A stretch of 64,000 bases of DNA, from the IMG/VR virus record IMGVR_UViG_3300007354_000004, positions 1-64,000 of that record; one strand, written 5' to 3'. Shown in pieces: positions 3,660 to 40,912 of this stretch; position 1 is the first letter of the stretch; every line of letters begins with the position of its first letter. Source of the stretch: a virus. The notes below the pieces were generated by a model that saw only the letters and a list, made by a program, of their open reading frames with translations, searched no databases and was not told where the DNA came from. The translations under genes and the position numbers were made by a program.

Positions 3660-4604
3660 ATGCTAGAAGGCAAAGTGTTGATCACGGGTGGTACGGGTAG
3701 TTTGTCTGAGCACCTTTTAGAGCGCGCCAACAACGAAAACTGGGACGCTGAGTTTATTATTTTTTCTCGCTCTGAATCACGTCAAGCACAACTAAAGCGG
3801 AAATATCCAAAGCATCGTTATGTGCTAGGTGACGTTGGTTTTATTGATGATCTTGAACGTGTAATGTGTGGAGTAGACACTGTTTTACACTTCGCAGCAT
3901 ACAAGCGAGTAGAAAGTGCGCAAAATAACGTAAGTGCTACGGTTAGAACTAATGTCATCGGTAGCGAAAACGTTGCACGATGTGCCGTTCGTTATGGTGT
4001 CAAACATGTTGTAGGAACATCCAGTGATAAAGCCGTTGAATCAGAATCAAACTATTACGGTCAAAGTAAAACCCTCATGGAAGGTCTTTTTAAAGAGGCT
4101 AATCAGTGGGGAAATACAGTATTTACCCTAGCTCGTTATGGAAACGTTCTAGGAAGCACTGGATCAGTTGCAGTTTTGTTTGATAAGCAAGTTAAAGCGG
4201 GAGGTCCACTTACAGTAACTTCACGCACAATGACACGCTTTTGGCTAACTTTTTCTCAGGCTATAGACATTGTTTTGCACGCTATGCAGCAAGAGCCAGG
4301 AACAATTACTGTTCCAAAAGCACACGCGAGTACGATGGAGACATTTGCACGAGCCTTTGTCCCTGATGGTATGTTAATAGATATTGTTGAAATTGGAACG
4401 CGACCCGGTGAAAAACAGTGTGAGAATATGGTGAGTTTGTCGGAGTCTCTTCACACCGATCAAGACGATAATTATTTTTATATTCGTCCGCCTAAAAACG
4501 ATCTGGTGTTGTATCAGGGAAAAGAGATGTTTCGATATACCAGCGATCAGGCTCCGCAGTTAACTGTTGACGATTTAAGAGAGATGATGGGACTTAATGT
4601 CTAA
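3660..4604 (+). CDS. NDP-sugar 4,6-dehydratase / epimerase (CapD/PseB-like SDR)
   Basis: 314 residues, an extended short-chain dehydrogenase. The N-terminal nucleotide-binding loop is TGGTGSLSEHLLERA. A GDVGFIDDL segment and VLHFAAYKRV follow, then the catalytic region TSSDKAVESESNYYGQSK with the YxxxK pair (Y..SK near 139-143). The SDKAVxxxxxYGxxK arrangement is that of CapD/PseB/FlaA1 enzymes, which act on UDP-GlcNAc by 4,6-dehydration (with or without 5-epimerisation). It would be the first committed step of a deoxy-amino-sugar pathway. The enzyme is soluble, without the N-terminal membrane part of FlaA1/WbpM-type proteins. It overlaps the next gene by 8 bp. Confidence 0.85.
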   Translation: MLEGKVLITGGTGSLSEHLLERANNENWDAEFIIFSRSESRQAQLKRKYPKHRYVLGDVGFIDDLERVMCGVDTVLHFAAYKRVESAQNNVSATVRTNVIGSENVARCAVRYGVKHVVGTSSDKAVESESNYYGQSKTLMEGLFKEANQWGNTVFTLARYGNVLGSTGSVAVLFDKQVKAGGPLTVTSRTMTRFWLTFSQAIDIVLHAMQQEPGTITVPKAHASTMETFARAFVPDGMLIDIVEIGTRPGEKQCENMVSLSESLHTDQDDNYFYIRPPKNDLVLYQGKEMFRYTSDQAPQLTVDDLREMMGLNV

Positions 4605-8742: not shown

Positions 8743-9518
8743 TACTCGTCTTAGGTCAGGGACTTTTAGGTAAAACCCTCTCGAAGCTATATCCCGATAC
8801 CGTAGGTATTGGACACGAAGATTTTGACATCTGCAGCCCAGAGCAAGTTTACGCGATACTGGATTTATATAAGCCAACTCACATAATTAATTGTGTTGGA
8901 GTGGTGCCTAAATCTCCCATATATGAATCTCACATGGATGTTTTAAAGGTTAACGGGTTTGGGCCGAGACTATTAGCCGAAGCCTGTTTAGATGTAAATT
9001 GCCGCGTTATTCACATCTCAACCGACTGCGTGTTTTCAGGCTCTACAGGGAACTATTCAGAATTTGACATTCCTAATTCCGATACATTATATGGCATCAG
9101 TAAATACTTCGGAGAGATTACTTACTATAATAACGTTGTATTTCGAACATCCTTCGTCGGTTTTCCCGATCCCACTCAGCGCGGACTTTTGTATTGGTTT
9201 AAATACGCTGAAAATCCGGTTGAGGGGTATGTCAACTCGTGGTGGAACGGTTTGACGACTGTTGAGTTGTCACATTACATCATGAGTCATCTCGATATTA
9301 TTTCGGGATTACATCACGTCTCGAATAAGACACACATCAATAAACATGATCTTTTGGTTCTAGCCAACGAAGTTTACGGGTGGGAGAAAGAGATTATTCC
9401 TGTCGAAGATCCAAAGTTAGATCGAACGCTGTACAGTGAAACGATTGATAAATCTTACCGAGAGATGTTTGAAGAGATGAAGGCACAACTAGGAGATCTG
9501 GATGAAGGTCTATCTTAA
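8739..9518 (+). CDS. RmlD-like dTDP-4-dehydrorhamnose reductase family SDR
   Basis: 259 residues from the ATG that overlaps the previous stop (ATGA at 8739). The NAD(P) loop is ILVLGQGLLGKTL; INCVGVVPKSP, ISTDCVFSG and the catalytic YGISKYFGE (YxxxK) follow, in the order seen in RmlD proteins. It would reduce a 4-keto sugar, possibly the product of the dehydratase at 3660. Whether the product is rhamnose-like or another deoxy sugar cannot be read from the sequence. Confidence 0.82.
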   Translation: MILVLGQGLLGKTLSKLYPDTVGIGHEDFDICSPEQVYAILDLYKPTHIINCVGVVPKSPIYESHMDVLKVNGFGPRLLAEACLDVNCRVIHISTDCVFSGSTGNYSEFDIPNSDTLYGISKYFGEITYYNNVVFRTSFVGFPDPTQRGLLYWFKYAENPVEGYVNSWWNGLTTVELSHYIMSHLDIISGLHHVSNKTHINKHDLLVLANEVYGWEKEIIPVEDPKLDRTLYSETIDKSYREMFEEMKAQLGDLDEGLS

Positions 9519-12264
9519 CCCTTCGTTTGATAAGCCCGACAAAGGTGATGGCGGTATTCGCCGTGTGGTGGAGGCACAAAGAAAATATCTACCTGAGTTT
9601 GGCGTAGAGTTTGTTGATACACCCGGCGAAGCAGATGTTGCTAACTGTCACGCTACATCCTTTGTCGATCACGATACATTGGTATTGAGTCTACACGGAC
9701 TGTATTGGGCAGAGTATGACTGGCCCAAGTGGTATTTACAGGTTAATGATTCTCTGATTAAGAGCATGAAAAGCGCCAAAGCAGTCACCGCCCCGTCTGA
9801 GTGGGTGGCGAATGCTGTGCGGCGGGGAATGCTGATCGATCCAGTCGTATGTTATCACGGTATCGATGTTGAAGATTGGACTCCCGGCAAAAGTAAAAAC
9901 TACGTGTTGTGGAATAAAAATCGCGTTGATACGGTCTGCGATCCAGCACCCATGAATCGACTGGCTTTTCTGGATTCGTCTGTTCCGTTTGTGTCAACTT
10001 TCGGGGAGAAGACATCTAACGTCACGCTGACGGGTAAACTCTCGTATGAGAAGATGAAATCTTATATTCAAAATGCGGGCGTGTATCTGGCAACCTCTAG
10101 AGAGACGTTGGGGGTTGGGACACTCGAAGCGATGGCGTGTGCTACACCTGTCTTGGGGTGGAACTACGGTGGACAGCGAGAGATCGTTCGACACGGGGTA
10201 ACAGGCTATCTGGCTGAATACGGAAATTATGATGATCTGTTAGATGGATTACATTATTGTTTGGATCATCAAGACGAACTAGGAGCAAACGCTCGTCAAG
10301 ATGTACTAGAGAATTGGAGATGGGAACGTGTTATTCAAAGCTACCTACGCGCCTACCAGCAAGCCCTCGCCATCGACTACGGACCAACAGTTAGCGTTGT
10401 GGTCACGGCTTATAACCTGGATCAATATCTACCAGACGCCCTGCAATCGGTCAAGGATCAAAAATTCAAAGACTGGGAGTGTATCGTCGTCAACGACAAC
10501 TCCCCCGACACCTGTGGAGCAATAGCCGAAGCGTTTGCGCAAGAAGATGATCGTTTCAAAGTCATCCACAATCCCAAGAATGTTTATCTAGCCGAAGCTC
10601 GAAATATAGGCATTCAAAATTCAACCGGAAAGTATGTTATTCCGCTGGATGCCGACGATATGTTGGGCGAGGACGCTTTGGGGAGATTGGTTAGGGCGCT
10701 CGATCAAAATCCTCAGTTGGATATCGTCACCGGCTCGATGGAGCTTATTGAGGAAAACGGACACCGCTGGGTGTCTAAGTGGCCTAATGCTAAAACCGTG
10801 AGCTTTTCCGAGCAGATTAAAAAAAGAAATCAGATTCCTTATGCGTCTCTCTATCGTAGAGAAGTCTGGGAGCGCACCGGAGGTTATCGGAGGCGGATGA
10901 GATCGGCAGAAGACGCGGATTTCTGGACGCGAGCCTTTTCTTACGGATTCATTCCAAGTAAAGTTACCGAAGCGCCGACTCTTATTTACAGAAATCGATC
11001 TTCTTCGATGAGTCACACTGAATCGGAGCCAAACTGGATCTCGTGGTTCACCTGGGCGACATACGAACACCTGGTACCTTTCGGAGTTGGTGGTCCGGTG
11101 TGGTCTTACGGTCCTCCTTTGATCTCAGTAGTGATTCCAGTTGGACCGCTGCACGTTCCTTTCTTGCAGGACGCTTTAGACTCTTTAGTAGGACAAACCC
11201 TTAAAGAGTGGGAATGTATCGTTGTCAATGATACCGGAAAACCCCTGACTTTGCCTGGATTTCCGTTTGTGAAAGTTGTCGATGGCGGCAAGCAAGGCAC
11301 GGCTCACGCTCGTAACGTAGGCTTTGAGCACGCCAGTTGTGAGCGGGTGGTTCTGTTGGATGCGGACGATTATATGCAGCCGCATATGTTGATGACGCTC
11401 TATCAAGCCTCTCTGGAAACGGATGGGTATTTATACTCGGATTGGTGGGCGGATGATGGGGAGAAAGTCTACCGCGAACACGCGAAATCGTGGGATCCAG
11501 AACAACTTAAACTGCAGTCTTTAGGTCCGGTGATCGGCTTATACTGGAAAGAAGATTGGAAGAAGGTGGGTGGATTTAGCGAGGACGCGCCTGGGTGGGA
11601 AGATTGGGATTTTCATCTTAAATTACTGGAAAACTGTATTTGTGGCAGTCGCATCCCTCACCCCCTGTTCACTTATCGGTATAGACTGGGCTTAAATCGA
11701 GATAAGGATTTTGCTAATAAGAAAACTCTGTTAAAATATATAACAGGGCGACATAAGGATCTCTATGGAGGACGTATGGGTTGTCAAGGATGTTCTAAGC
11801 GAAATGATTTGATTGTCAAAGAGGCTAAACGAACACTCGTGTCTTCTAACGACGAGCAGATTACGGTTGAGTATATTGGACCGGGGCTTAACAAGCGTCG
11901 GATTCCGAGTCACGTCCGGCGCGGACACTATTATACCTACAGCGCCACTCAGCGTATCTTTGACATTTACAAAGCCGAAGCGGATCGTTTTCTGAGCCGA
12001 CCGAGCGAATTTAGGGTACATCGAGAAACTATTCAAAACGAAATTCCGCCTTCGGATGAGCCAGTCATTGTAGCTGAAAAAGTTGTCGTGCCGCCGCGCT
12101 CGATTGAAAACCTCGATATCGATGGGGATTTGATCGCAAGACTGCGCAAAGAAGGCATTACAACGATTGAACAACTCCGGTTGATGAATGACGGATCGCT
12201 GTTGAAAATTCGAGGAATCGGTCCGTCTCGGTTAGCCGCTATCCGCGAAGCGTTAAATGTTTGA
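9502..12264 (+). CDS. Trifunctional GT4-GT2-GT2 glycosyltransferase with C-terminal HhH
   Basis: 920 residues. A GT4/GT-B-like domain fills 1-~290 (APSEWVANAV, YHGIDVEDW, SRETLGVGTLEAMACATP, then the E.v..G.tGyL region). A first GT2 domain fills ~295-525 (VSVVVTAYNLDQYLPDALQS, VVNDNSPD, PLDADDM). A second GT2 fills ~535-745 (LISVVIPVGP, VVNDTGKP, LLDADDYMQP). A CxxC-containing basic segment (GCQGCSKR) leads to a small domain (VEYIGPGLNKRRIPSHV), and the last ~55 residues form a helix-hairpin-helix (LRKEGITTIEQL ... LLKIRGIGPSRLAAIREAL). It could add three sugars in succession. The HhH may anchor it to DNA or mediate assembly; this is unresolved. Confidence 0.85.
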   Translation: MKVYLNPSFDKPDKGDGGIRRVVEAQRKYLPEFGVEFVDTPGEADVANCHATSFVDHDTLVLSLHGLYWAEYDWPKWYLQVNDSLIKSMKSAKAVTAPSEWVANAVRRGMLIDPVVCYHGIDVEDWTPGKSKNYVLWNKNRVDTVCDPAPMNRLAFLDSSVPFVSTFGEKTSNVTLTGKLSYEKMKSYIQNAGVYLATSRETLGVGTLEAMACATPVLGWNYGGQREIVRHGVTGYLAEYGNYDDLLDGLHYCLDHQDELGANARQDVLENWRWERVIQSYLRAYQQALAIDYGPTVSVVVTAYNLDQYLPDALQSVKDQKFKDWECIVVNDNSPDTCGAIAEAFAQEDDRFKVIHNPKNVYLAEARNIGIQNSTGKYVIPLDADDMLGEDALGRLVRALDQNPQLDIVTGSMELIEENGHRWVSKWPNAKTVSFSEQIKKRNQIPYASLYRREVWERTGGYRRRMRSAEDADFWTRAFSYGFIPSKVTEAPTLIYRNRSSSMSHTESEPNWISWFTWATYEHLVPFGVGGPVWSYGPPLISVVIPVGPLHVPFLQDALDSLVGQTLKEWECIVVNDTGKPLTLPGFPFVKVVDGGKQGTAHARNVGFEHASCERVVLLDADDYMQPHMLMTLYQASLETDGYLYSDWWADDGEKVYREHAKSWDPEQLKLQSLGPVIGLYWKEDWKKVGGFSEDAPGWEDWDFHLKLLENCICGSRIPHPLFTYRYRLGLNRDKDFANKKTLLKYITGRHKDLYGGRMGCQGCSKRNDLIVKEAKRTLVSSNDEQITVEYIGPGLNKRRIPSHVRRGHYYTYSATQRIFDIYKAEADRFLSRPSEFRVHRETIQNEIPPSDEPVIVAEKVVVPPRSIENLDIDGDLIARLRKEGITTIEQLRLMNDGSLLKIRGIGPSRLAAIREALNV

Positions 12265-38378: not shown

Positions 38379-38969
38379 CTATTCTCCAATCGCAGGAATA
38401 TATTCTTCTGACATTTTCTTCATAACCTGCAGTGTCATACGCACATCGGCGCAAGCATCGTGAGCACCGTCTGTCACTATATTAAACCGACTTGCCGCAT
38501 CTGTCAACTTTTTCCATCGAAAAGAACTAAACTTAGACTGCCACTCGCCATTGTATTTGGCGTATTCGAGCATGGCACACTGCCACGTATTCGGAAAATG
38601 CTCCAGATCATACAAATCGCAGGTGTTATTCAGAATATTCCGATCAAATTCGGCATTATAGGCAACAACGATCTTATCTCTTAGAATATCCTGAAGTTGC
38701 GGATATACATCGGCAAACGTGGGCGATTTAGCCACATCTTTCTCGGTAATGCCGTGTACTTTTGCTGCACCCGCTGAGATTTTACCTTTAGGCTTGATCA
38801 ACTGATCCATCAAAGTATGACCATCTTTATCGATAATGCCCAACTGAATGATCTCGCCCCCATTTTCGATCTTGTCAGTTGTTTCCGTGTCGAGCACGAC
38901 AAAATCCCGCTCTAGAATATCGCTGGCCCAATAAACAGAATCCAAATACGCCTGTCGCAGAAAATCCAT
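38379..38969 (-). CDS. DnaQ-like DEDDh 3'-5' exonuclease
   Basis: 196 residues. Exo I is VVLDTETTD, Exo II VVAYNAEFDRNIL, and Exo III GAHDACADVRMTLQVM with the His five residues before Asp (DEDDh). HGITEKDVAKSPTF is another family mark. It may act as a proofreading or repair exonuclease, in addition to the built-in exonuclease of the polymerase. Confidence 0.88.
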   Translation of the reverse strand: MDFLRQAYLDSVYWASDILERDFVVLDTETTDKIENGGEIIQLGIIDKDGHTLMDQLIKPKGKISAGAAKVHGITEKDVAKSPTFADVYPQLQDILRDKIVVAYNAEFDRNILNNTCDLYDLEHFPNTWQCAMLEYAKYNGEWQSKFSSFRWKKLTDAASRFNIVTDGAHDACADVRMTLQVMKKMSEEYIPAIGE

Positions 38970-39146
38970 CTACTTTTCCTTTACCTCAAATCCCATGCCC
39001 ATCACAAATGACGCCAGATGAATTAATCTCAGCCCCAACCAGATGCGAAACCGCAACCAACGCGACAACACTAAGAACATTTCCACATTTTTAGTTACCA
39101 CCAGATCCACGTCTCCAAATTTTTTAACGATTATCTTCTTCGGCAT
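38970..39146 (-). CDS. Small basic membrane-associated protein
   Basis: 58 residues (MPKKIIVKKFGDVDLVVTKN...). Basic N-terminus and one hydrophobic stretch (LSRWLRFRIWLGLRLIHLAS). SD weak; overlaps the upstream gene by 23 bp and ends right at the exonuclease gene. Confidence 0.45.
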   Translation of the reverse strand: MPKKIIVKKFGDVDLVVTKNVEMFLVLSRWLRFRIWLGLRLIHLASFVMGMGFEVKEK

Positions 39147-39270
39147 GTGCTTTAGCCCACATCGCCCCCAAGAAAGCCGCAAACAAAGCGAACACGGCAT
39201 TCCACCAGGGCATAATTAAAAAGCCGATAACGATATAAACCAGCAGAGTGAAAGCGAGTAGAGGAACCAC
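39124..39270 (-). CDS. Small two-helix membrane protein
   Basis: 48 residues if started at GTG 39270 (AAAGGA upstream). Two hydrophobic segments (VPLLAFTLLVYIVIGFLIM, WNAVFALFAAFLGAMW) and a charged end. First coding region after the large non-coding RNA. Confidence 0.5.
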   Translation of the reverse strand: MVPLLAFTLLVYIVIGFLIMPWWNAVFALFAAFLGAMWAKAHAEEDNR

Positions 39271-39299
39271 GTTCAATCCTTTATGTAAAGTTTTGCCGC

Positions 39300-39817
39300 G
39301 TTTCTGGTCTGGGGCACACGGCAAAGCCCCATATCAAACCCAACGACAGACCAAGATCGCTGGGGCGGATAACAAGGGAGCCCAGCGCCCCCGGTTGCGG
39401 CCTACTACTCCGACTAGCAGAGGTTCAGTCGCAAAAGGTTGGTAGTGTGCTGTTACGCCAAAGCCTCAGACGGCCACGTTGCTTGCATTGCTGCCAAGAC
39501 CATCCCATATCCGATCCCGACAGGTTAATTCGCATTTCCTCCCGTACTATGCAAACATACAAGCAACCCCTGGCTTGCTCTAGTTCATCGTTCTAGAGAA
39601 GGAAAAACATAGTACGGGTTCTCTATTAGGACGCCCTAGAGTGCTACCATTCCGTGTGGTATTCTGGTTTCGCAACATACCGATGGGACACGGCTACCGG
39701 GCACCACCCGTCTCATGCACCAGAACTTGAGATTACCCGACTGGTTAGATCGGCGCTCTCTTCCACTCGGCACTCTTTAAAGGATGGCTGCTTCTAAGCC
39801 AACCTCCTACCAACCAA
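39300..39817 (-). ncRNA. Large structured non-coding RNA (about 520 nt)
   Basis: There is no credible ORF, yet many perfect complementary segments are visible (coordinates on the plus strand). GGTTGGTAG/CTACCAACC, 9 bp: 39807-39815 with 39437-39445. CCCGTACTATG/CATAGTACGGG, 11 bp: 39541-39551 with 39608-39618, enclosing two hairpins (39560-39577 and 39578-39598). AGAGTGC, 7 bp: 39770-39776 with 39638-39644, enclosing TTCTGGT/ACCAGAA at 39719-39725 with 39662-39668. CGCTGGG/CCCAGCG: 39358-39387. TGGTCTG/CAGACCA: 39305-39353. The RNA begins directly at the 3' end of tRNA-Thr, so tRNA processing would create its 5' end, and the shared promoter lies at 39987-40015. Large ornate RNAs of phages (ROOL, GOLLD) are also found near tRNAs; I cannot tell whether this belongs to one of them. 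The exact 3' end is uncertain. Confidence 0.75.
39770..39807 (-). other. 23S rRNA-like segment (helix 43 of the GTPase-associated centre)
   Basis: The 38 nt read GGAGGTTGGCTTAGAAGC followed by AGCCATCC and TTTAAAGAGTGC. This is the bacterial 23S rRNA pattern at E. coli ~1055-1092, comprising helix 43 with its loop and the strand leading to helix 44. After GAGTGC the similarity breaks off; the GTAATAGCTCACTGG of helix 44 is absent. Confidence 0.7.
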
Positions 39818-39889
39818 AGCCCGCTCTCAGACTTGAACTGAGATTCCGCCAGTACAAATGGCGCGTTTTGCCAGTTAAACTAAGCAGGC
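39818..39889 (-). tRNA. tRNA-Thr (anticodon UGU)
   Basis: Perfect 72-nt cloverleaf. Acceptor GCCTGCT/AGCGGGC (one T-G pair), D-stem GTTT/AAAC, anticodon stem CGCCA/TGGCG with loop TTTGTAC (anticodon TGT, U33 present). The variable loop is GAAT; the T-arm is CTCAG TTCAAGT CTGAG, discriminator T. No encoded CCA. Three bases separate it from the upstream tRNA. Confidence 0.93.
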
Positions 39890-39892
39890 ATT

Positions 39893-39980
39893 TGGATCTG
39901 CGGGGAATTGAGCCCCGGTCCAGATTTACTCGCCAGCGATTAAACTGCTGACTTTCTCCCTGTCGAATACCTTCAGACCC
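39893..39980 (-). tRNA. Candidate class II tRNA, anticodon UUA (would read UAA)
   Basis: 88 nt. Acceptor GGGTCTG/CAGATCC (7 bp, one G-T), T-arm CGGGG CTCAATT CCCCG, long 16-nt variable region, discriminator A. The best anticodon arm is CAGCA GTTTAAT CGCTG (mismatch at 31-39), giving U33 and anticodon TTA, an ochre suppressor. The D-arm is poor (only TTC/GAA can pair). It could be a Tyr- or Leu-type suppressor, or a degenerate tRNA. The predicted transcription start falls exactly on G1. Confidence 0.45.
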
Positions 39981-39986
39981 GTACAT

Positions 39987-40015
39987 ACTATATCATGCTA
40001 ATTATGCTTTGTCAA
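39987..40015 (-). promoter_or_regulatory. Promoter of the tRNA / structured-RNA unit
   Basis: -35 TTGACA (40010-40015), 17-bp spacer, -10 TATAGT (39987-39992). Seven bases after the -10 lies G 39980, the first base of the candidate tRNA, so the transcript would be leaderless. Confidence 0.8.
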
Positions 40016-40183
40016 GTGCTTTTCGTTAATTTTCTGTTTGCATTTCCGACAGTATACACTTTTGTAACTCGCAAACAGATGGGGCGGCATATATTTCTGG
40101 CATCCGCTACACCACTGATAGCGCAGGACTGGCAAACTACCCACCCGAACGGGAATTATTCTATGCTGATATCGGCCCCGCAC
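39998..40183 (-). CDS. Small zinc-finger protein
   Basis: 61 residues from GTG 40183 (AGG 7 bp upstream). WCSGCQKYMPPHLFASYKSV then YCRKCKQK gives two CxxC pairs like the zinc ribbon at the N-terminus of phage HNH proteins. It overlaps the end of the lipoprotein gene and the tRNA promoter. May be a remnant of an HNH gene. Confidence 0.42.
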   Translation of the reverse strand: MRGRYQHRIIPVRVGSLPVLRYQWCSGCQKYMPPHLFASYKSVYCRKCKQKINEKHLTKHN

Positions 40184-40280
40184 TGATCAGCCTATCATAT
40201 AGATATGTATCTGGATCTGAAACGACGCACGTCGAACAGGCACTCAATGTTATTAGCAGCGTGAGCATCAGGAGTCGCAT
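40161..40280 (-). CDS. Small lipoprotein
   Basis: 39 residues: MRLLMLTLLITLSACST then CVVSDPDTYLYDR. A hydrophobic signal with lipobox LSAC (lipid-modified Cys14) is clear. AAGGA lies 8 bp before ATG 40280, and the gene begins two bases after the preceding stop. Small phage lipoproteins serve as outer spanins or superinfection-exclusion factors; either is possible. Confidence 0.65.
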   Translation of the reverse strand: MRLLMLTLLITLSACSTCVVSDPDTYLYDRLISAGPISA

Positions 40281-40282
40281 GT

Positions 40283-40912
40283 CTAAGATCCTTCAATCTC
40301 TTTTTTAAATTTATCTAACCCCTGCTGGGCTGCTTCTTTGAACTTTTTAAGGGTTAAATAGTATCCCGCGTTAACTCCCACTATTTCTAGATCAGCAGAA
40401 AAAAGCACATACTCTTTTTCTGTCGTATCTTTAACAATAATCGAATCAATGTCTCCTATACGTCCATTAACTATTTGATAATATACCTCTACGAGTTTAT
40501 GCTGCGCGCCTGATTTAACGTGTATAGTTGATTTACCTATCATCTCGTTTCCCCCCAAACCCCATCGGAATTTAGGCAACTCTTTTGTTGAGATTATTTC
40601 CTTCTCAATGCCGGGCTTATCAAAGATATTATCTTTTACGGAAACTGTTTCACTGTTAATTTCACGTAAAAATTTTTGTTTTCCCTCAAGAGCCACTTTT
40701 CGGATAGAAACAAGATCAACAACGTAAACAGTGAAAGAGTTGGGACGAACCTGTAATGCGTATCCTTCGCTATCACACGTTACCACAGCGGCATTAGCGT
40801 ATACCGTAATATAGGTTATCTGCCTGAAACACCCCTGAACAGACTCATACTCAACCTTAACCCTATATTTCTCATCTTCATTTGTAATTTCATATTCTGT
40901 ATTAGATAACAT
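40283..40912 (-). CDS. Hypothetical beta-rich protein
   Basis: 209 residues from ATG 40912 (GGGAGA upstream). Repeated strand patterns (YRVKVEYESVQGCFRQITYI, SFTVYVVDLVSIRKVALEG) and a charged helical end (KFKEAAQQGLDKFKKEIEGS). No signal peptide; no recognised family. Part of the operon with the HAD-like and lipoprotein genes. Confidence 0.55.
   Translation of the reverse strand: MLSNTEYEITNEDEKYRVKVEYESVQGCFRQITYITVYANAAVVTCDSEGYALQVRPNSFTVYVVDLVSIRKVALEGKQKFLREINSETVSVKDNIFDKPGIEKEIISTKELPKFRWGLGGNEMIGKSTIHVKSGAQHKLVEVYYQIVNGRIGDIDSIIVKDTTEKEYVLFSADLEIVGVNAGYYLTLKKFKEAAQQGLDKFKKEIEGS

What the first reader, a model, noticed from the sequence alone, without database searches (positions are those of the whole stretch)
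39300..39817. Large, highly structured RNA directly behind phage tRNAs
Roughly 520 nt with no ORF contain at least eight perfect helices of 5-11 bp, several long-range and properly nested (9 bp spanning about 370 nt, an 11-bp stem enclosing two hairpins, 7-bp pairs enclosing 7-bp pairs). It shares one promoter with two tRNAs. The placement recalls ROOL and GOLLD RNAs of phages, but the sequence seems unfamiliar. It may be a new class.
Basis: partly seen in the sequence, partly recalled or inferred. Interest (0 to 1): 0.95.

Follow-up and report, generated by a model that had tools for sequence, protein, structure and literature searches.

The report
Phage RNA imitating a ribosome part
A virus of bacteria carries, next to its transfer-RNA gene, an RNA that rebuilds the piece of the bacterial ribosome where ribosomal protein L11 binds and translation factors dock, with an extra folded domain plugged in; many other phages carry relatives of it, and we found no earlier description.

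Summary
The finding is real and better than described. On the minus strand, 39815-39437 (379 nt) is a free-standing copy of the GTPase-associated centre of 23S rRNA (helices 42-44, the uL11 site). A 314-nt phage domain is plugged into the 5' strand of helix 44. It follows a consensus promoter, a tRNA-like-domain-only tmRNA and tRNA-Thr. Rfam 15 does not match it; it is not ROOL or GOLLD. On 80 non-redundant ones the closing helix pairs in 85% of cells (33-45% when slid). Pair 1058:1080 is kept in 80/80 with 52 double changes. Tertiary pair 1082:1086 is kept in 72/80 with 28 double changes, though it is U-A in all 22 distinct host 23S sequences compared. So this is a selected RNA family, not a 23S fragment. 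No L11 family protein was found in 30 phage records (several are fragments). Most likely it acts in trans as a decoy that captures host uL11; that step is inferred. Rivals: decoy for translation GTPases, or for a host effector that attacks this rRNA site.

The parts
39987..40015 (-). Promoter of the RNA operon: TTGACA, 17-nt spacer, TATAGT, TG before the -10
   Evidence: 11 of 12 consensus matches; start would fall at about 39980, the 5' end of the tmRNA-like RNA (inference)
39892..39980 (-). tRNA-like-domain-only tmRNA (89 nt; UUCGAC motif, G3.U70)
   Evidence: RF00023, E 1.1e-14 in a 1,341-base search, 41.2 bits (gathering 47), model ends 1-374 both matched; G3.U70 read by eye
39818..39889 (-). 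tRNA-Thr (UGU)
39437..39815 (-). The GAC-mimic RNA (379 nt), starting 2 nt after tRNA-Thr
39807..39815 (-). P1, 5' strand (GGUUGGUAG, equals an extended helix 42)
   Evidence: 547/640 cells of the inner 8 pairs paired in 80 RNAs
39781..39805 (-). Helix 43 (E. coli 1057-1081) with the A1067 loop
39774..39780 (-). UUAAAGA (E. coli 1082-1088): tertiary core, includes pairs 1082:1086 and A1088:U1060
39460..39773 (-). Phage-specific inserted domain (314 nt: GU, P2 domain, UUU) between nt 1088 and 1091 of the 23S numbering
39769..39771 (-). P2, 5' strand (GCC)
   Evidence: first four P2 pairs 79/79, 77/79, 73/79, 52/79
39463..39465 (-). P2, 3' strand (GGC)
39541..39618 (-). 11-bp stem inside the inserted domain (outer strands 39618-39608 and 39551-39541); GUACUA/UAGUAC also in L089 and L115
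   Evidence: read by eye from the sequences
39445..39459 (-). Helix 44 hairpin and 3' return (GGCGUAACAGCACAC, E. coli 1090-1104; U1101 changed to A)
39437..39445 (-). P1, 3' strand (CUACCAACC; the first C is 1104)
39339..39392 (-). Two terminator-like hairpins after the RNA (weak)
   Evidence: 2 found, 1.4 expected in shuffles

Best explanation
It is a phage-encoded RNA that rebuilds, as a free-standing module, the GTPase-associated centre of 23S rRNA (helices 42-44). A phage-made helix P1 closes the fold, and a phage-specific domain closed by P2 is plugged into the 5' strand of helix 44. SHOWN: the homology, the family, the covariation of secondary and tertiary pairs, its place beside tRNA-type genes, and no match in Rfam 15. 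INFERRED: it is transcribed with the tmRNA-like RNA and tRNA-Thr, cut out at the tRNA ends, folds like the rRNA domain and binds host uL11, whose C-terminal domain binds this same fold in 23S rRNA. As an abundant decoy it would keep uL11 (and what acts through it, such as RelA activation and factor recruitment) away from ribosomes or nascent subunits. Its neighbour, a tRNA-like-domain-only tmRNA, would act in the same style: a published molecule of this kind strongly inhibits tmRNA, perhaps by titrating SmpB. Identity about 0.97; uL11 capture as the main action about 0.5 (the confidence given below).
For: 80 non-redundant RNAs: P1 85% paired against 33-45% slid; 1058:1080 80/80 with 52 double changes; 1057:1081 79/80 with 12; tertiary 1082:1086 72/80 with 28, shuffle maximum 58. 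In the 31 of these found by the 3' motif, whose 5' letters were not searched for exactly, G1059, U1060, G1063, C1072, A1077, C1079 and A1088 are 31/31 (a strict filter of up to 3 changes still applied). In the 40 found by the 5' motif, A1101 and A1098 are 40/40. In 22 distinct true 23S sequences 1082:1086 is always U-A, 1061 always U, 1101 always U (after dropping L321, itself a phage-type copy); the phage RNAs differ (1061 is A in 24/80) yet keep the fold. Among 79 distinct cores picked by the 3' motif, the loop tip is relaxed (A1067 63/79, G1068 61/79, A1070 61/79; all three 22/22 in hosts) while G1059, U1060, G1063 and C1072 stay 79/79: selection seems to be on the fold and L11 side more than on the factor-contact tip. 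L11 binding to this RNA: PMC4409310 and PMC3592554 (passages). No L11 family match in 30 phage records, 14 of 14 controls positive. Decoy style: PMC4131195 passage on DS6A.
Against: No binding or expression data. Mature ribosomes already carry uL11, so a decoy may act too slowly in a lytic cycle unless uL11 exchanges or new subunits are targeted. The inserted domain (26-347 nt without the last CUUU) is not explained by L11 capture alone. The L10(L12) part of helix 42 is not copied (position of that site recalled). The tip is relaxed but not free (A1067 still 63/79), so factors may also matter. The ranking is partly shaped by my scoring template, which rewarded core letters and pairs. The tmRNA stub beside the RNA was seen only in the window: no other locus held has one, and none of the 11 other stub contigs shows the core within 3 kb. 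24 of 80 loci hold no tRNA or tmRNA at all.
Confidence: 0.5

Rival explanations
1. Decoy or docking platform for translational GTPases or RelA: the RNA binds EF-G, EF-Tu, IF2 or RelA-tRNA through the A1067/A1095 tips, with or without L11, and so slows or redirects host translation.
For: A1067 and A1095 are mostly kept (73/80, 77/80). A1067 contacts the A/R tRNA elbow in the RelA complex (PMC5829649, passages). The region binds elongation factors (PMC3592554, passage). That small GAC RNAs alone bind EF-G is recalled, not looked up.
Against: Tip positions 1067, 1068, 1070, 1096 are more variable than in the 22 host 23S sequences, the reverse of what tip contact predicts. I saw no sarcin-ricin loop: the SRL-like UAGUACG stretch of the window lies inside a perfect stem; this was read by eye only.
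Confidence: 0.2
2. Decoy target for a host anti-phage effector (nuclease, methylase or toxin) that attacks the GAC, as phage tRNAs are thought to blunt tRNA-cutting defences.
For: Often sits in phage tRNA arrays (same-strand tRNA within 30 nt in 32 of 80 loci). Isolated GAC RNAs of 58 or 29 nt are substrates for an A1067 methyltransferase (PMC4409310, passages). The relaxed tip could mean escape.
Against: No GAC-directed phage-defence effector is known to me (not searched for). The spread over phages of Pectobacterium, Cronobacter, Erwinia, Serratia, Xanthomonas, Pseudomonas and Aeromonas and over viral contigs would need a common effector.
Confidence: 0.13
3. The RNA enters ribosomes or pre-50S particles and replaces or repairs the host GAC in trans.
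For: Core is near-identical to 23S.
Against: P1 differs freely from the 23S helix 42 sequence and U1101 is changed in 80/80 (A 79, G 1); a domain of up to 347 nt is plugged in.
Confidence: 0.05
4. A cis-acting ribosomal-protein leader that senses L11.
For: Several ribosomal-protein leaders imitate rRNA sites (PMC7247131, passages).
Against: No L11 family match in 30 records, several of them fragments; in the window the RNA follows a tRNA gene, and 32 of 80 loci have a tRNA within 30 nt.
Confidence: 0.03
5. Host 23S contamination, pseudogene or assembly artefact.
For: Some phage-collection hits are plain 23S (L128, L247).
Against: Same insertion site and same non-23S changes in 80 non-redundant RNAs, with covariation; present in 12 fetched cultured-phage genome records; a phage 3' signature in only 7 contigs of a collection of 84,980 bacterial and archaeal species.
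Confidence: 0.01

Closest known systems
GTPase-associated centre of 23S rRNA (E. coli 1051-1108, helices 42-44, uL11 site)
   Same: Core sequence, helix 43, helix 44 hairpin GUAAYA, pairs 1060:1088 and 1082:1086
   Different: Free-standing; closed by an unrelated P1; a domain between 1088 and 1091 (26-347 nt in 80 RNAs); U1101 changed to A; not part of a 23S gene
TLD-only tmRNA of mycobacteriophage DS6A
   Same: A phage RNA that copies only part of a host translation RNA; such a molecule inhibits tmRNA (PMC4131195, PMC11915505; passages)
   Different: Copies tmRNA, not rRNA. The window carries one of this kind as well, upstream of the GAC mimic
ROOL and GOLLD RNAs
   Same: Large structured phage RNAs often near tRNA islands, function unknown (PMC12286853, passages)
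   Different: No Rfam match of this RNA to either; none in 20 loci with relatives
Ribosomal-protein leaders (r-leaders)
   Same: Several imitate rRNA protein-binding sites (PMC7247131, passages)
   Different: Act in cis with r-protein genes; here a tRNA-type operon and no L11 gene found
Phage T4 stable RNAs C and D (species 1 and 2)
   Same: Stable RNAs of a phage tRNA cluster (annotation)
   Different: No GAC core on reading the two RNAs; a scan of that 5-kb T4 stretch gave only one chance-like match, lying outside them

Membership tests
23S rRNA GTPase-associated centre (as a fold) | Conserved core nucleotides and helix 43/44 pairs | tested here: met
23S rRNA GTPase-associated centre (as a fold) | Tertiary pairs 1082:1086 and 1060:1088 (roles recalled) | tested here: met
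   72/80 with 28 double changes; 80/80 (invariant, so silent on covariation)
23S rRNA GTPase-associated centre (as a fold) | Binds uL11 C-terminal domain | not testable with these tools
   needs a binding assay
23S rRNA gene | Contiguous helix 44 inside a 23S gene | tested here: not met
   insert in the window and relatives; the two true 23S copies held then have none
ROOL (Rfam) | Match to the covariance model | tested here: not met
GOLLD (Rfam) | Match to the covariance model | tested here: not met
Ribosomal-protein leader | Lies with, and regulates, an r-protein gene | tested here: not met
   no L11 family match in the window's record or in 29 others; only L11 and L12 families were sought
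tmRNA, TLD-only form (39980-39892) | tmRNA tRNA-like domain with UUCGAC and G3.U70, no room for pseudoknots | tested here: met
   (below Rfam's gathering score)
tmRNA, TLD-only form (39980-39892) | Inhibits trans-translation / binds SmpB | not testable with these tools
   published for such a molecule

The most novel reading that the evidence does not exclude
Phages of many lineages field trans-acting RNAs that imitate a functional centre of the ribosome: an L11-capturing copy of the GTPase-associated centre, in this phage next to a trans-translation-blocking tmRNA stub, as RNA-only tools to take over host translation and silence the stringent response. The plugged-in domains would be interchangeable effector modules.
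Probability: 0.4. Interest if true: 0.97.

Novelty: categorically new. Interest (0 to 1): 0.93.

Why it matters
rRNA mimicry was known to me only in cis, in leaders of ribosomal-protein genes. Here a viral RNA copies a functional ribosome domain and keeps even a tertiary pair by compensatory change while drifting away from 23S. It gives a direct handle on how phages act on translation GTPases, uL11 and the stringent response, explains part of the unannotated sequence in phage tRNA arrays, and is testable at once in cultured phages (pf16, GAP32, CBB, Aeromonas phage 4_4572). It may also supply natural binders of the uL11 site.

Tried and rejected
Rfam at gathering score (window; 20 loci with relatives) and at E <= 5 (38960-40300) found only tRNA and tmRNA here. 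Sarcin-ricin loop copy: rejected by eye, because the stretch lies in a perfect stem. T4 RNAs C and D: no core. More close relatives of the window's own insert by a 15-base pattern: 26 stretches, of which L115 and L122 were known and the 24 new ones show no core nearby. Relatives through the neighbouring exonuclease: four distant loci, no RNA seen in the held flanks. A conserved protein across the region: none in Pfam for eight ORFs. Phage-encoded L11: no match in 30 records, of which 27 loci plus the window are strict hits and two (L143, L188) carry the 3' motif with a looser core; bL12 over cut-off in 2 of 30. The insert falls into several kinds; the largest blast group has 17 of 80 members and the window's insert groups with none at E 1e-3, though nhmmer aligns 119 positions to L115 at E 3e-5 in a small set. 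Literature: ten searches of the open PMC library (two of them aimed at tmRNA stubs and at GAC biochemistry) showed no phage GAC-like RNA in the rows listed; not all matching papers were listed, and subscription papers and most preprints are not in that library.

Rows dropped: of 160 hits, L124 (duplicate of the window) and one row too short to read were dropped, leaving 158; 116 of 158 have the standard core spacing, a filter that fixes U1083-A1085, so those three are not counted as evidence; 80 remain after removing those over 85% identical: 71 viral contigs, 4 cultured phages, 4 genome contigs, the window. 50 first-pass sites had no 3' partner; many look like chance matches but they were not examined one by one. 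Of 119 sites with the 3' motif, 106 passed core and P1 thresholds. Of 22 cultured-phage records (17 phages by name) that I read as this family, 12 were fetched and all 12 carry it; the other 10 records, and all but two of the apparent 23S records, were not opened. Two hits have odd spans (L229, 639 nt; L242, 462 nt, where a tandem copy confuses the count).

Full report
What is there. Read on the minus strand, the region looks like one RNA operon: a consensus promoter (TTGACA, 17 nt, TATAGT, with TG before the -10, 40015-39987), an 89-nt tmRNA-like RNA (39980-39892), tRNA-Thr (39889-39818), and two bases later the RNA of the finding (39815-39437). The record is an 81,155-base virus contig with a phage DNA polymerase, a DnaB-like helicase and a primase zinc finger. 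Its polymerase is below 60% identical to each of the 2,661 phage records matched, so the phage is far from known ones.

What it is. The first 42 nt of the RNA read GGUUGGUAGGAGGUUGGCUUAGAAGCAGCCAUCCUUUAAAGA, and at the end stands GGCGUAACAGCACACUACCAACC. These are the two strands of the GTPase-associated centre of 23S rRNA (E. coli 1051-1108; letters recalled, and partly confirmed by the mutagenesis primers printed in PMC5829649, passage). In 23S they are contiguous. Here 314 nt stand between A1088 and the helix 44 hairpin, in the 5' strand of helix 44. Blast of the region against 50,697 phage records gave 47 records; blast of the core alone gave 48, a mix of plain 23S fragments and 22 records (17 named phages) that I read as this family. 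I fetched 12 of those phages (XacN1, CBB, pf16, Aeromonas 4_4572, Milchi, BF, XbC2, Astolliot, UNO-G1W1, GAP32, Kaldavass, pEa_SNUABM_12), and all 12 carry the inserted form. Paenibacillus phage Pd_22F (L128) and an Acinetobacter record (L247) are plain 23S without insert. In the stretches shown none of the 12 records annotates the RNA; Milchi, UNO-G1W1 and Kaldavass have short hypothetical proteins called over it.

How widespread. Of the 119 loci of the 5' motif, 68 are the inserted RNA; the rest include chance matches. A slightly narrower 3' motif occurs in only 7 contigs of a collection covering 84,980 bacterial and archaeal species, 4 of which gave the full RNA at strict settings. Of 119 sites found by the 3' motif, 87 have the 5' core at strict settings and 106 pass looser core and P1 thresholds; some of the rest are cut by contig ends or have unusual spacing. 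In all, 160 sites, 132 distinct RNAs, the window's included.

Evidence that the fold is selected. After dropping L124 (the window again), one short row, 42 rows with non-standard core spacing and near-duplicates, 80 RNAs remain. P1 varies freely yet pairs: 547 of 640 cells for the inner eight pairs, against 209-290 of 640 when slid by 1-3. Helix 43: 1058:1080 paired in 80/80 with 52 changes on both sides; 1057:1081 in 79/80 with 12. P2, which closes the inserted domain, is paired in 79/79, 77/79, 73/79 and 52/79 for its first four pairs, with GC, AU, UA and CG all seen from the second pair on (one very short insert was left out). The tertiary pair 1082:1086 is standard in 72/80 with 28 double changes, more than any of 500 shuffles (maximum 58). 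As a control I took 22 distinct true 23S sequences from samples of the phyla of two genomes reached through L137 and L133, plus the two phage-collection copies. Only genomes where blastn found the query gave rows (19 of 61 and 28 of 60), so the sample leans to similar sequences; a 23rd row, L321, turned out to be the phage form and was dropped. In these 22, 1082:1086 is always U-A, 1061 always U, 1101 always U. The phage RNAs therefore drift from 23S while keeping the fold, which a recent fragment, contaminant or pseudogene would not do. Shuffles ignore kinship, so the counts are not probabilities; the slid control keeps kinship.

Search bias. Letters in the search motifs are conserved partly by construction. 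The fairer readings are the 31 of 80 found through the 3' motif for the 5' half (G1059, U1060, G1063, C1072, A1077, C1079, A1088 all 31/31) and the 40 of 80 found through the 5' motif for the 3' half (A1098, G1099, A1101, A1103 all 40/40). The spacing filter fixes U1083-A1085.

Which face is under selection. Among 79 distinct cores picked by the 3' motif, the loop tip is relaxed: A1067 in 63, G1068 in 61, A1070 in 61; whereas G1059, U1060, G1063 and C1072 are in all 79. Part of this contrast comes from my scoring template, and rows with insertions between helices 43 and 44 blur positions 1079-1088. In the 80-RNA set 1096 is A in 58. In the 22 host sequences 1067, 1068, 1070 and 1096 never vary. 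This points to the folded core and the L11 side rather than to the factor-contact tips.

Context. Of 80 loci, 56 hold a tRNA or tmRNA and 24 none; 39 have a same-strand tRNA within 200 nt, 32 within 30 nt, and 12 are flanked on both sides within 200 nt; 20 random positions per locus gave 331 of 1,600 within 200 nt on either strand. tmRNA genes lie in 4 of the 80 loci by ARAGORN (L043, L053, L115, L218), 41 nt after the RNA in L115; the window's own short one is missed by ARAGORN. In 30 phage records, several of them fragments, no L11 family protein was found while all 14 control genomes gave one, so the partner, if it is L11, is probably the host's. bL12 passes the cut-off in 2 of 30.

The insert. 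It runs from 26 to 347 nt without the last CUUU (window 310) and falls into several kinds; the largest blast group has 17 of 80, and over the 80 RNAs GGUAAGGC stands in 12 and GGCACCCC in 10. The window's kind is seen in two other distinct sequences (L115/L122 and L089/L120/L121/L123), which share GUGSCGAG..GGAAG after helix 44 (the search pattern) and the GUACUA/UAGUAC stem (not searched for). The next inner pair of that stem is U-A in the window, G-C in L115 and C-G in L089 (read by eye). nhmmer aligns 119 positions of the window's insert to L115 (E 3e-5 in a set of 160 sequences). The other helices of the minimum-energy fold are unproved.

Mechanism. The isolated 58-nt rRNA domain folds by itself and is the binding site of L11 (PMC4409310, passages); the L11 C-terminal domain binds it tightly and the region serves elongation factors (PMC3592554, passage). 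The simplest action of an abundant free copy is to capture uL11. Downstream effects would be on subunits assembled during infection and on functions that need uL11, such as RelA activation (recalled). The neighbour supports this decoy reading: TLD-only tmRNA is known from phage DS6A, and such a molecule strongly inhibits tmRNA, perhaps by titrating SmpB (PMC4131195, passage; PMC11915505, passage). Against a fixed pairing of the two: no other locus examined has both. Steps shown: sequence, family, fold selection, operon layout. Steps inferred: transcription, processing, L11 binding, physiological effect.

Comparison with the known. It is not ROOL or GOLLD, not an r-leader as far as L11 and L12 go, not a 23S gene. 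Ten searches of the open PMC library (listings read, and passages of the papers named here) showed no report of a phage GAC-like RNA in the rows listed; subscription papers were not searchable. I rate the kind, a trans-acting viral copy of a functional rRNA domain, as new.

Noticed in passing
window 39980-39892 (-): 89-nt tRNA-like-domain-only tmRNA with G3.U70 at the head of the same operon; a frame GUC AGC AGU UUA AUC GCU GGC GAG UAA could be a short tag but is weak.
   Followed up: partly
L276-L286, e.g. L284 3711-3630: Eleven viral contigs (eight distinct sequences) carry 80-83-nt TLD-only tmRNAs; by eye all 11 keep G3.U70 and 8 of 11 end in CCA. L284 scores 76 bits to RF00023; the others were not scored. 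The papers I saw name one phage case (DS6A).
   Followed up: partly
L284 6012-5916: Pistol ribozyme match (50.7 bits, gathering 34.5) in the same viral contig as a TLD-only tmRNA.
   Followed up: no
L074 5122-5700: Two GAC-mimic RNAs in tandem; Milchi (L130) and Astolliot (L242) also show a second upstream core.
   Followed up: no
L351: A 518-kb virus record (that of L156) that carries the RNA also encodes an L12-family protein over the Pfam cut-off.
   Followed up: no
L115 and L053: Full-length tmRNA genes lie 41 and 204 nt downstream of the GAC-mimic RNA.
   Followed up: no
L321: A phage-type GAC copy in the genome of L137 (bacterium D16-76), probably the same site as L137; its loop reads GGGAGC instead of AGAAGC. 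A prophage is likely but was not checked.
   Followed up: no
window 9502-12264 (+): 920-aa protein with glycosyltransferase matches; a nucleotide-sugar epimerase-like protein lies at 3660-4604.
   Followed up: no
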